A stretch of DNA of 35,471 bases, taken from Lachnospiraceae bacterium (GTDB taxonomy: Bacteria > Bacillota > Clostridia > Lachnospirales > Lachnospiraceae). The position numbers and the translations under genes are program-made. The DNA lies in contig JAFSHK010000013.1 of assembly GCA_017440375.1 (NCBI GenBank), forward strand, positions 1-35,471. Reading direction: 5' to 3'. Positions 24,401 to 35,361 of this stretch are shown in pieces; the stretch's first letter is position 1, and the number at the start of each line of letters is the position of its first letter. The notes below the pieces were generated by a model. It was not told the origin of the DNA, searched no databases, and saw only the letters and a program-made list of their open reading frames with translations.

Positions 24401-24429
24401 TTGTAGAAACTAGTATTTTCGTATATAAT
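24401..24429 (+). promoter_or_regulatory. Promoter of the type III antitoxin RNA
   Basis: TTGTAG (24401-24406) and a consensus TATAAT (24424-24429) are spaced by 17 nt. The start of transcription would be near 24436, about 25 nt before the first RNA repeat. This is where a type III toxin-antitoxin operon needs its promoter. Confidence 0.75.
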
Positions 24430-24460
24430 ACAAGTGAAAGCAGAATAGTTTTCCTTCATC

Positions 24461-24572
24461 AATGATGAGTCCTGTGACGGTTCTGACAGGACGGTAAAAT
24501 AAAAAGTGACCGAATGATGAGTCCTGTGACGGTTCCGACAGGACGGTAAAATAAAAAGTGACCGAATGATGA
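24461..24572 (+). ncRNA. Type III antitoxin RNA: two 52-nt tandem repeats plus a partial third
   Basis: Units at 24461-24512 and 24513-24564 differ at a single base (T at 24484, C at 24536), and AATGATGA at 24565-24572 begins a third. Each has a 7-bp stem GTCCTGT/ACAGGAC (24469-24475 with 24486-24492; 24521-24527 with 24538-24544). A loop CGGT can pair with ACCG at the unit end, which would make an H-type pseudoknot, the fold known for type III antitoxins. An A-rich linker (AAAATAAAAA) gives a plausible toxin cleavage site. The repeats lie between a strong promoter and a terminator, upstream of the toxin gene. Confidence 0.8.
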
Positions 24573-24579
24573 AGTATTT

Positions 24580-24607
24580 AACGAGAGGTTTCGACCTCTC
24601 GTTTTTG
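24580..24607 (+). terminator. Terminator between antitoxin RNA and toxin gene
   Basis: ACGAGAGG (24581-24588) pairs with CCTCTCGT (24595-24602) around TTTCGA, followed by T-rich sequence. In type III systems such a leaky terminator makes the antitoxin RNA more abundant than the toxin message. Confidence 0.85.
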
Positions 24608-24662
24608 TTATATTGGAGAGTTTGCAAGTGACCTCTTTTTGATTGGAATAAAGGAAGTGAGT

Positions 24663-25145
24663 ATGAGATTACCGGAAAATGATTTTCAAATATTAAGATT
24701 AACAGATGCTTTTTATAGGGAATATCCAAATCCACCGTATGTAGAAATATTAAAGAAAATGAAAAGGGCATATAATTGTATTCTTTTTCAAACTAATTAT
24801 GATTACTATATTTGTGTTCCGTACAGAACAGAGATATCGCATACATATTCGTATTGTTTTAAAAATTCGGCTCGTTCAAGGGAACATAAGTCAGGCGTGG
24901 ATTATACAAAGAGTGTGATTATAAACAATGGTGATTACATTGATAATAAGGACGCGTTGATAGATCAGGATGAGTACAAAGAAACAATGATTAATTTGAA
25001 ACGAATAAATCGCGAAGCGTTACTGTTTGTAGAAGATTATGTATTGCACATGAAAGGCGTAAAATTTTTGCATGCTAAAGAGTTTGCAAGAAGATATCAA
25101 TACTCTCCGTTAAAGTATTTTCATAAGGAGCTAGGTATAGCATAA
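24663..25145 (+). CDS. Type III toxin-antitoxin endoribonuclease toxin (CptN/TenpN, ToxN/AbiQ superfamily)
   Basis: The 160-residue protein resembles TenpN/CptN toxins. Key blocks are AYNCILFQTNYDYYICVPYRT, then YCFKNSARS, then SGVDYTKSVIIN, and a C-terminal helical part (TMINLKRINREALLFVEDYV). These toxins are sequence-specific RNases that cut their own antitoxin RNA repeats and, when freed, cellular mRNA; known roles are abortive infection against phage and plasmid maintenance. The start at 24663 has AAGGA seven nt upstream; the frame is open from a TTG at 24639 that lacks a ribosome site. Promoter, RNA repeats and terminator lie just upstream in the expected order. The C-terminus may be altered (see 25122-25185). 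Confidence 0.85.
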   Translation: MRLPENDFQILRLTDAFYREYPNPPYVEILKKMKRAYNCILFQTNYDYYICVPYRTEISHTYSYCFKNSARSREHKSGVDYTKSVIINNGDYIDNKDALIDQDEYKETMINLKRINREALLFVEDYVLHMKGVKFLHAKEFARRYQYSPLKYFHKELGIA

Positions 25146-34056: not shown

Positions 34057-34102
34057 AAACCTTCAAACTGATGTAAGATAAAATTACTCAGTTTGGAGGT
34101 TT
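34057..34102 (+). promoter_or_regulatory. Fold-back hairpin covering the transposase ribosome site
   Basis: AAACCTTCAAACTG (34057-34070) pairs with CAGTTTGGAGGTTT (34089-34102) over 14 bp including one G-U pair, with an 18-nt loop. The right arm contains the GGAGG ribosome site (34095-34099). Transcripts entering from outside would fold and hide the site. Confidence 0.6.
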
Positions 34103-34107
34103 TATTT

Positions 34108-35361
34108 ATGGCAAGAAGAAAAGACAGCCCACAAAAAGCAGCAATGCGAGAAATGATGCGTGATTATCTCAAGAGTAACGATATCAGCATCAAAAGCGGA
34201 ACCGATGTGAATTCCGTCATGCGAGACATGATGTCCATCCTTTTGGAAGGAGCACTCGACGAGGAACTTGACGAAGAACTCGGTTATTCCAAGTACGATT
34301 ATCGAAACAAGGAAACGGACAACAGCCGCAATGGCCATTCTCAAAAGACCATACATACCAGTTACGGAGATATGGAACTGTCCATTCCCCGTGACCGAAA
34401 CGGCGAATACGAGCCACAGCTTATTAAAAAATACCAGAACACTATTACTCAGGACATGGAAGAAAAAATACTGTCCATGTATGCAAAAGGAATGACGACC
34501 GGAGATATTGAATCCCACATGAAAGAACTCTACGACATAGATATTTCCGACAGTACCATCAGCCGGATTACTGACAAGATACTTCCCATCGTGAAGGAAT
34601 GGCAGGAACGTCCGTTAGAAGAGGTTTATGCCGTTGTCTTCATGGATGCTATTCATTACCATGTACGAAGCGAAGGACGTATTGTAAAACGCGCTGTCTA
34701 CATCGCACTGGGTATTGATATGAACGGTAAAAAAGACGTCCTTGGAATGTATGTCGGAGAGAATGAAAGTGCCAAGTTCTGGCTTTCCATTATGAATGGA
34801 TTAAAGAACCGTGGCGTGGAAGATATCCTGATTGCATGCGTGGATGGACTTTCCGGATTTCCACAGGCAATTGAGGCCGTGTATCCACAGACTGAAATTC
34901 AGCAGTGTATTATCCATCAGATTAGAAACACCACAAAATTCGTATCCTACAAAGATATCAAAAAACTAATGGCAGATTTAAAACGTGTTTACGCTGCTCC
35001 GACGGAAGAAGGTGCTTTAAACGAACTGGAACTGTTTAAAGATAAATGGGATTCCAAATATCCTAAAATTTATAAATCCTGGCATGACAACTGGGCAACG
35101 CTTTCAACCTACTTTAAGTATCCGGAAGCTGTCCGTCGCCTGATTTATACCACAAATGCCATCGAAGGATTTAATCGTCAGCTTCGGAAAGTAACAAAAT
35201 CAAAAACTGTGTTTCCATCGGATGACAGTCTTTTAAAAATGCTGTATCTGGCAACTATGGATATCACGAAAAAATGGACCGGACACCGACAGGATTGGGG
35301 ACAGATCCGCTCCCAACTTGAAATCTATTTTGAAGAACGCTTAGACGGAAGAAATCTGTAA
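34108..35361 (+). CDS. IS256-family transposase
   Basis: The 417-residue DDE transposase appears intact. The catalytic core shows VVFMDAIHYHVR (first Asp), ACVDGLSGFPQAI (second Asp), the C..H block QQCIIHQIRNT and the TTNAIEGFNRQLRK block with the catalytic Glu. IS256-type elements move by a copy-out-paste-in circle intermediate. The ATG at 34108 has GGAGG eight nt upstream; an earlier in-frame ATG at 34093 lacks a ribosome site. It is likely functional. Confidence 0.95.
   Translation: MARRKDSPQKAAMREMMRDYLKSNDISIKSGTDVNSVMRDMMSILLEGALDEELDEELGYSKYDYRNKETDNSRNGHSQKTIHTSYGDMELSIPRDRNGEYEPQLIKKYQNTITQDMEEKILSMYAKGMTTGDIESHMKELYDIDISDSTISRITDKILPIVKEWQERPLEEVYAVVFMDAIHYHVRSEGRIVKRAVYIALGIDMNGKKDVLGMYVGENESAKFWLSIMNGLKNRGVEDILIACVDGLSGFPQAIEAVYPQTEIQQCIIHQIRNTTKFVSYKDIKKLMADLKRVYAAPTEEGALNELELFKDKWDSKYPKIYKSWHDNWATLSTYFKYPEAVRRLIYTTNAIEGFNRQLRKVTKSKTVFPSDDSLLKMLYLATMDITKKWTGHRQDWGQIRSQLEIYFEERLDGRNL

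What the first reader, a model, noticed from the sequence alone, without database searches (positions are those of the whole stretch)
24401..25145. Complete type III toxin-antitoxin locus with a two-repeat, 52-nt RNA antitoxin
Seen: a 17-nt-spaced promoter (24401-24429), two 52-nt tandem repeats differing at one base, a stem-loop terminator (24580-24607) and a 160-residue protein with CptN/TenpN-like blocks (PYRT, YCFKNS, SGVDYTKSV). This order defines type III systems, where an RNA pseudoknot holds an RNase toxin. Each repeat can fold as an H-type pseudoknot (stem GTCCTGT/ACAGGAC, loop CGGT with ACCG). The repeat sequence seems unlike the antitoxins I know and may be a new RNA variant. Such loci often defend against phage.
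Basis: partly seen in the sequence, partly recalled or inferred. Interest (0 to 1): 0.82.

Follow-up and report, generated by a model that had tools for sequence, protein, structure and literature searches.

The report
Bacterial suicide toxin with RNA antidote
The stretch is a complete example of a known bacterial self-poisoning system (type III toxin-antitoxin, TenpIN family), in which a repeated, knotted RNA is expected to hold an RNA-cutting protein in check; relatives support the knot and show that toxin genes that look intact nearly always sit beside two RNA repeats.

Summary
The 160-residue ORF (24663-25145) is a TenpIN-family toxin (NCBIfam NF047358, 154.7 bits, cut-off 90). Upstream lie two 52-nt repeats differing at one base and an intrinsic terminator. 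Close relatives carry the same RNA upstream of the toxin. In 24 distinct repeat units the 7-bp stem and the 4-bp pseudoknot stem are always paired; four stem-1 pairs and one pseudoknot pair have changed on both sides, while the competing hairpin shows no covariation. Rfam has no match.

Searching for the RNA alone found it in 45 genomes. Of 43 classifiable loci, 16 of 22 with two repeats have a full-length toxin frame, but at most 1 of 21 with one repeat does (Fisher 5e-6, uncorrected for relatedness). Toxin loss goes with array collapse, in three loci apparently by recombination between repeats that mispairs the stems. At this site next to polC the closest relative keeps only a remnant.

It is a new member of a known kind with clean comparative support for its antitoxin fold. 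RNase activity, RNA processing and phage defence remain untested.

The parts
24401..24429 (+). promoter: TTGTAG, 17-nt spacer, TATAAT
   Evidence: sequence; a similar element at the same place in relatives, read by eye; not listed by the strict consensus scan
24436..24453 (+). 5' leader hairpin of the inferred transcript
   Evidence: fold of 24436-24610, z -4.48 against shuffles for the whole stretch; transcription start inferred from the -10 box
24454..24461 (+). 5' arm (CTTCATCA) of a helix that would close the array
24468..24514 (+). TenpI repeat 1, pseudoknot unit: S1a 24469-24475, S2a 24478-24481, S1b 24486-24492, A-rich loop 24493-24508, S2b 24509-24512
   Evidence: RNA model R1, 75 bits (the unit is one of those the model was built from); pair counts
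24520..24566 (+). TenpI repeat 2, pseudoknot unit: S1a 24521-24527, S2a 24530-24533, S1b 24538-24544, A-rich loop 24545-24560, S2b 24561-24564
   Evidence: RNA model R1, 73.6 bits (likewise in the model); pair counts
24461..24572 (+). tandem array, period 52, 2.2 copies
24567..24574 (+). 3' arm (TGATGAAG) of the closing helix
24580..24607 (+). intrinsic terminator between antitoxin and toxin
24651..24656 (+). ribosome-binding site AAGGAA
   Evidence: sequence
24663..25145 (+). tenpN, TenpIN-family toxin, 160 aa, predicted endoribonuclease
   Evidence: NCBIfam NF047358, 154.7 bits, cut-off 90; 13 of 13 aligned proteins, the window's included, match the same model

Best explanation
A complete type III toxin-antitoxin locus of the TenpIN family. 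One promoter makes a short RNA of about 175 nt holding two pseudoknot repeats; most transcripts stop at the terminator, and a minority read through into the toxin gene. TenpN, an endoribonuclease, is expected to cut the precursor into single 52-nt repeats and to be held inactive by them in a closed complex. If antitoxin supply fails, for example when a phage shuts off host transcription, the RNA is lost first and free TenpN cuts cellular RNA and stops growth. Shown here: the gene order, the family of the toxin, and the two stems of the pseudoknot by compensatory change. Inferred from studied type III systems: transcript length, read-through, processing, complex formation, RNase activity, and the role (phage abortion or maintenance of the DNA that carries it).
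For: Toxin in the TenpIN equivalog family, 154.7 bits against a cut-off of 90; 13 of 13 aligned proteins, the window's included, match it. Two 52-nt repeats and a terminator. Of 43 loci with a toxin match to the window protein, 26 carry the same RNA unit upstream by pattern, the complete toxins among them about 42-76% identical to the window's; the other 17 are fragments or more distant toxins. 24 distinct units: 264 of 264 pair cells standard, 5 of 11 pairs with changes on both sides; the alternative hairpin shows no covariation and fails in 2 of 24 rows. Units beside full-length toxin frames have both stems intact in 33 of 33, beside broken or absent toxins in 24 of 32 (p 0.002). Two repeats go with toxin frames: 16 of 22 against 1 of 21 (p 4.9e-6; relatedness not corrected).
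Against: No direct evidence of expression, RNase activity, processing or phage defence. The -35 box is weak. Five loci have two repeats but no TenpN within the flank held (G017, G128, G175, G254, G429). The minimum-energy fold of the isolated window RNA pairs stem arms across the two identical repeats instead of within each (that program cannot show pseudoknots). Two of the covariation measures, the number of pairs changed on both sides and the number of further pair types, are reached by 51 and 48 of 500 shuffles.
Confidence: 0.95

Rival explanations
1. A decayed locus: the RNA and reading frame remain but the toxin no longer works, as in many relatives of the same clade.
For: 26 of 43 classifiable loci with this RNA lack an intact toxin; the closest relative by polC keeps only a remnant at the same site, and of the 30 polC neighbourhoods examined only the window's holds a whole copy within the up to 1.5 kb looked at.
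Against: The window has two repeats with both stems intact, a terminator, a ribosome-binding site, an ATG start and a full-length frame without stops that keeps the residues invariant in the 13-protein alignment.
Confidence: 0.05
2. The upstream RNA folds as simple hairpins (second CGGT with ACCG) rather than as an H-type pseudoknot.
For: The pairing is possible in 22 of 24 distinct units and 29 of 33 units beside toxin frames.
Against: No compensatory change in that helix. Where ACCG became ACAG, the loop CGGT became CTGT and restores the pseudoknot while the hairpin breaks; this change is shared by related loci and may be a single event. The hairpin would also compete with the outermost stem-1 pair.
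Confidence: 0.06
3. The repeats act as a cis regulator (attenuator or riboswitch-like leader) of the downstream gene and do not bind the toxin.
For: The terminator lies between the repeats and the gene, so the array is also a leader.
Against: TenpIN is a curated type III family; the link between repeat number and toxin integrity is expected of an antitoxin. A regulator would not be excluded by that link alone.
Confidence: 0.03

Closest known systems
TenpIN of Photorhabdus luminescens (type III; passages seen in PMC5377504 and PMC5086642)
   Same: Same toxin family by name, repeats - terminator - toxin order, chromosomal
   Different: Its sequence was not fetched, so neither RNA nor toxin was compared directly; that system aborts phages in E. 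coli and Pectobacterium, untested here
CptIN of Eubacterium rectale (type III; passages seen in PMC4627078 and PMC5086642)
   Same: Two genetic repeats, adenine-rich long loop, H-type pseudoknot; forms a 2:2 heterotetramer
   Different: 45-nt unit, loop 1 of one base, a different toxin family (NF047359, not matched by this protein)
ToxIN of Pectobacterium atrosepticum and Bacillus thuringiensis, AbiQ-antiQ of Lactococcus lactis (type III; passages seen in PMC5086642 and PMC5772629)
   Same: Tandem-repeat RNA antitoxin upstream of an RNase toxin, terminator between
   Different: 34-36-nt repeats in 2.8-5.5 copies, triangular 3:3 complexes for the two ToxIN, different toxin family
TenpIN-like toxins on plasmids of Exiguobacterium (L106) and Leptotrichia (L105)
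   Same: Toxin 31-33% identical; upstream units with a 7-8-bp stem, 4-bp stem 2 from its loop and an A-rich linker
   Different: Unrelated repeat sequences; listed in PLSDB as hypothetical proteins

Membership tests
Type III toxin-antitoxin, TenpIN family | Toxin homologous to TenpN | tested here: met
   NF047358 equivalog, 154.7 bits, cut-off 90
Type III toxin-antitoxin, TenpIN family | Tandem RNA repeats directly upstream, same strand | tested here: met
   two 52-nt copies, 98%
Type III toxin-antitoxin, TenpIN family | Intrinsic terminator between antitoxin and toxin | tested here: met
   24580-24607
Type III toxin-antitoxin, TenpIN family | Antitoxin repeat folds as a pseudoknot | tested here: met
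   by covariation only: stem 1 with four and stem 2 with one pair changed on both sides, 264 of 264 cells paired; no three-dimensional evidence
Type III toxin-antitoxin, TenpIN family | Toxin is an endoribonuclease that processes the repeats and is inhibited by them | not testable with these tools
   needs bench work
Type III toxin-antitoxin, TenpIN family | Abortive infection of phages (reported for some members, not required) | not testable with these tools
   needs phage plating
CptIN family | Match to NF047359 | tested here: not met
   absent from the NCBIfam list asked for up to E 10 (HMMER's filters drop most matches above 0.1); the model works, it hits another protein
ToxIN / AbiQ family | Sequence match to a ToxN/AbiQ model or solved structure | tested here: not met
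   no Pfam family up to E 1, no PADLOC family up to E 10, no ToxN or AbiQ among PDB sequences up to E 10; that Pfam and PADLOC hold a ToxN model is recalled, not checked; a fold comparison could not be run

The most novel reading that the evidence does not exclude
Many orphan copies of this RNA (26 of 43 loci lack an intact toxin; 24 of the 32 units in them keep both stems) are not just fossils: some are kept by selection as immunity RNAs that neutralise TenpN toxins arriving on mobile DNA, and two contigs of the IMG/VR collection carry the same RNA-toxin pair (L107, L108).
Probability: 0.1. Interest if true: 0.6.

Novelty: new member of a known kind. Interest (0 to 1): 0.36.

Why it matters
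Structures of ToxIN and CptIN complexes are described in the passages I saw; those passages mention none for TenpIN, and the PDB sequence search found no relative of this toxin. [quoted passage not shown] The comparative data give concrete predictions: a 7-bp and a 4-bp stem, an A-rich 15-16-nt linker, two repeats as the working minimum, and a leader-trailer helix that closes the array. Two repeats would be the number needed for a 2:2 complex of the CptIN sort made from one transcript (inference). These predictions can be tested in E. coli with the two genes alone.

Tried and rejected
CptIN or ToxIN membership: no match. Known Rfam family: none at gathering score; the sub-threshold matches are microRNA, snoRNA-type and lncRNA models and are taken as chance. 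Phage origin: the toxin finds no record in the phage collection; the single-sequence IMG/VR scan gave no relative, the alignment scan gave two contigs. In those two I looked for a terminase and a portal with two Pfam models and found neither, so their viral nature is not confirmed here. A different toxin sharing the RNA: five two-repeat loci have no TenpN downstream in the flank held; I looked at about 500 bases after the RNA by eye and saw no gene that recurs, but I did not scan those flanks with family models; L086 has a gene some 200 bases on that looks, from memory, like a Panacea-domain antitoxin. Orphan RNAs as selected immunity RNAs: kept only as the novel case, because stems decay (24 of 32 units intact against 33 of 33) and several have lost the promoter by eye. 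The pseudoknot search in distant TenpI used criteria chosen after seeing the data and found a fitting unit in the repeat region of 8 of 15 non-window loci (L009, L010, L012, L027, L047, L050, L105, L106); it found none in L011, L013, L014, L016, L046, L104, and in L015 only hits outside the repeats. The RNA-first searches of over 40 genomes used stricter filters that lose weak matches (notes), so decayed copies are undercounted.

Full report
What is there. The -35 box is poor (3 of 6), so the strict scan does not list the promoter; relatives have a similar one at the same place (by eye).

The toxin. NCBIfam assigns it to TenpIN (NF047358, equivalog, 154.7 bits, cut-off 90, residues 13-157). 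Pfam, PADLOC and the PDB sequences give nothing useful; PHROGs gives one family of unknown function (phrog_8049, E 7e-14). The alignment of 13 proteins shows invariant R35, Y37, C39, P53, R55, H60, F66, R71, D80, Y81, K83 among others. That the block around P53-R55-S/T56 corresponds to the catalytic T/S-S-K/R region of ToxN and CptN (passages of PMC8860590 and PMC4627078) is my inference, not tested.

The antitoxin RNA. Of 43 loci with a tblastn match to the window toxin (7 further loci had none), 26 carry the repeat unit by pattern: 43 units, 30 distinct (L028 is a second view of L018). The other 17 are toxin fragments or more distant toxins, most with other repeats. I aligned 24 distinct units, leaving out six from single-repeat loci. 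In the structure S1 (7 bp) - GA - S2a - loop - S1b - A-rich linker of 15-16 nt - S2b, 264 of 264 cells are standard pairs; 38 cells carry a change on both sides against 13.3 in shuffles and the covariation score is 0.381 against 0.097 (0 of 500 shuffles reach either), and sliding the partners by 1-3 columns destroys the signal. Against this: the number of pairs with such changes (5 of 11) and of further pair types (7) are reached by 51 and 48 of 500 shuffles, so the strength lies in cells and score. The stem-2 evidence rests on one pair in two distinct rows from related loci (L003, L004, L005, L017). The competing hairpin has no covariation. The IMG/VR contig L107 adds a further compensated stem 1, GACGAAT/ATTCGTC (by eye). 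Rfam has no match.

RNA-first survey. A covariance model of the unit was run over 77 genomes of the genus (14 positive), 397 of the family (29) and 392 of the order (9), with overlaps: 45 distinct positive genomes. I classed one locus per genome (toxin status set by me). Two lie at contig ends and were dropped (G033, G052); a third match in G175 was not classed; G041 counts as one repeat though only part of it remains. Of 43: two repeats with full-length toxin frame 15, plus one (G171) whose frame lacks a standard start codon; two repeats without intact toxin 6; one repeat with an intact toxin 0, plus one (G424) with a full frame but only a weak possible start; one repeat without intact toxin 20. 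Fisher p = 1.5e-6 (doubtful ones as broken) or 4.9e-6 (as intact). One 'intact' locus (G104) has altered last residues. Relatedness is not corrected (for example G306 and G392 have nearly identical flanks), so the p-values are too small. Both stems are complete in 33 of 33 units beside toxin frames and 24 of 32 beside broken or absent toxins (p 0.002); units here are not made distinct.

How arrays die. Three single-repeat loci look like deletions between repeat 1 and repeat 2, because the 5' half matches one repeat type and the 3' half the other, leaving mispaired stems: G010 and G015 (stem 2, 3 of 4 pairs) and G280 (stem 1, 5 of 7). All three have broken or absent toxins. This is what one expects if the toxin must be lost before, or with, the antitoxin's second repeat. 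PMC5086642 (passages) reports that at least 1.8 of the 2.8 antiQ repeats were essential and that clones with 0.8 were inviable, which agrees.

A closing helix. CTTCATCA (24454-24461) before the array can pair with TGATGAAG (24567-24574) after it; the fold of the whole RNA uses it. Across 16 two-repeat loci the best leader-trailer helix scores 7.16 on average against 6.22 (sd 0.28) when trailers are exchanged between loci, 0 of 2000 exchanges reaching it; G619 shows only a 4-bp match. Relatedness can inflate this. I made no search aimed at whether such a helix is in print.

Site and spread. In the genus 25 of 77 genomes have a TenpIN match, 17 over the cut-off; in a family sample 20 of 397 match the window protein. 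PolC's tail matched in 71 of 77 genomes; the 30 loci returned were examined, up to 1.5 kb downstream. The window has the whole locus after polC, its closest relative G041 (polC tail 98% identical) has a remnant of one repeat and the terminator there, and the other 28 show nothing similar to the window by blastn. Several of these have what I recognise from memory as a tRNA gene just after polC. This fits gain and decay at a variable site. Plasmids hold five distant relatives, 29-33% identical; two IMG/VR contigs hold relatives with the same RNA (62% and 43%).

Mechanism. From studied systems (passages of PMC5086642, PMC4627078, PMC5772629): the terminator keeps antitoxin in excess, the toxin trims the precursor to single repeats and is locked by them, and loss of antitoxin frees an RNase. 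TenpIN of Photorhabdus aborts some phages (PMC5377504, passages). None of this was tested for the present locus.

Verdict. An ordinary but complete and well-supported TenpIN locus; the RNA family is not in Rfam and could be added. Paper searches, listings only unless passages are named above; passages of PMC10853763 and PMC12804078 were also seen and add nothing on this RNA. The founding paper on TenpIN (recalled: Blower et al. 2012) is not held, so I cannot say that this RNA variety was not listed there.

Noticed in passing
L108 2150-4582 (IMG/VR contig IMGVR_UViG_3300031867_000008, 141 kb): Three type III-like loci in a row: a TenpIN-like toxin below cut-off (35.6 bits) after a 54-nt tandem array, a CptIN toxin (124.6 bits, cut-off 90) after what look by eye like repeats, and a TenpIN toxin (152.2 bits) after the same RNA as the window. 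No terminase or portal found with two Pfam models.
   Followed up: partly
window 24454-24461 with 24567-24574: Leader and trailer of the repeat array form an 8-bp helix that covaries between loci.
   Followed up: partly
L059, L082, L086, L095, L097: Two-repeat copies of the RNA with no TenpN gene downstream in the flank held: orphan antitoxins.
   Followed up: partly
L065 (G041), just after polC: Remnant of one repeat and terminator at the same chromosomal site as the window locus, toxin gone.
   Followed up: yes
L009, L010, L012, L027, L047, L050, L105, L106: More distant TenpIN loci have unrelated repeat sequences but a similar stem, loop and A-rich linker layout; stem 2 is GAGC/GCTC in L009 and L050 and GAAC/GTTC in L010.
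   Followed up: partly
window 34093-35361: Mutator-family transposase near the end of the contig.
   Followed up: no
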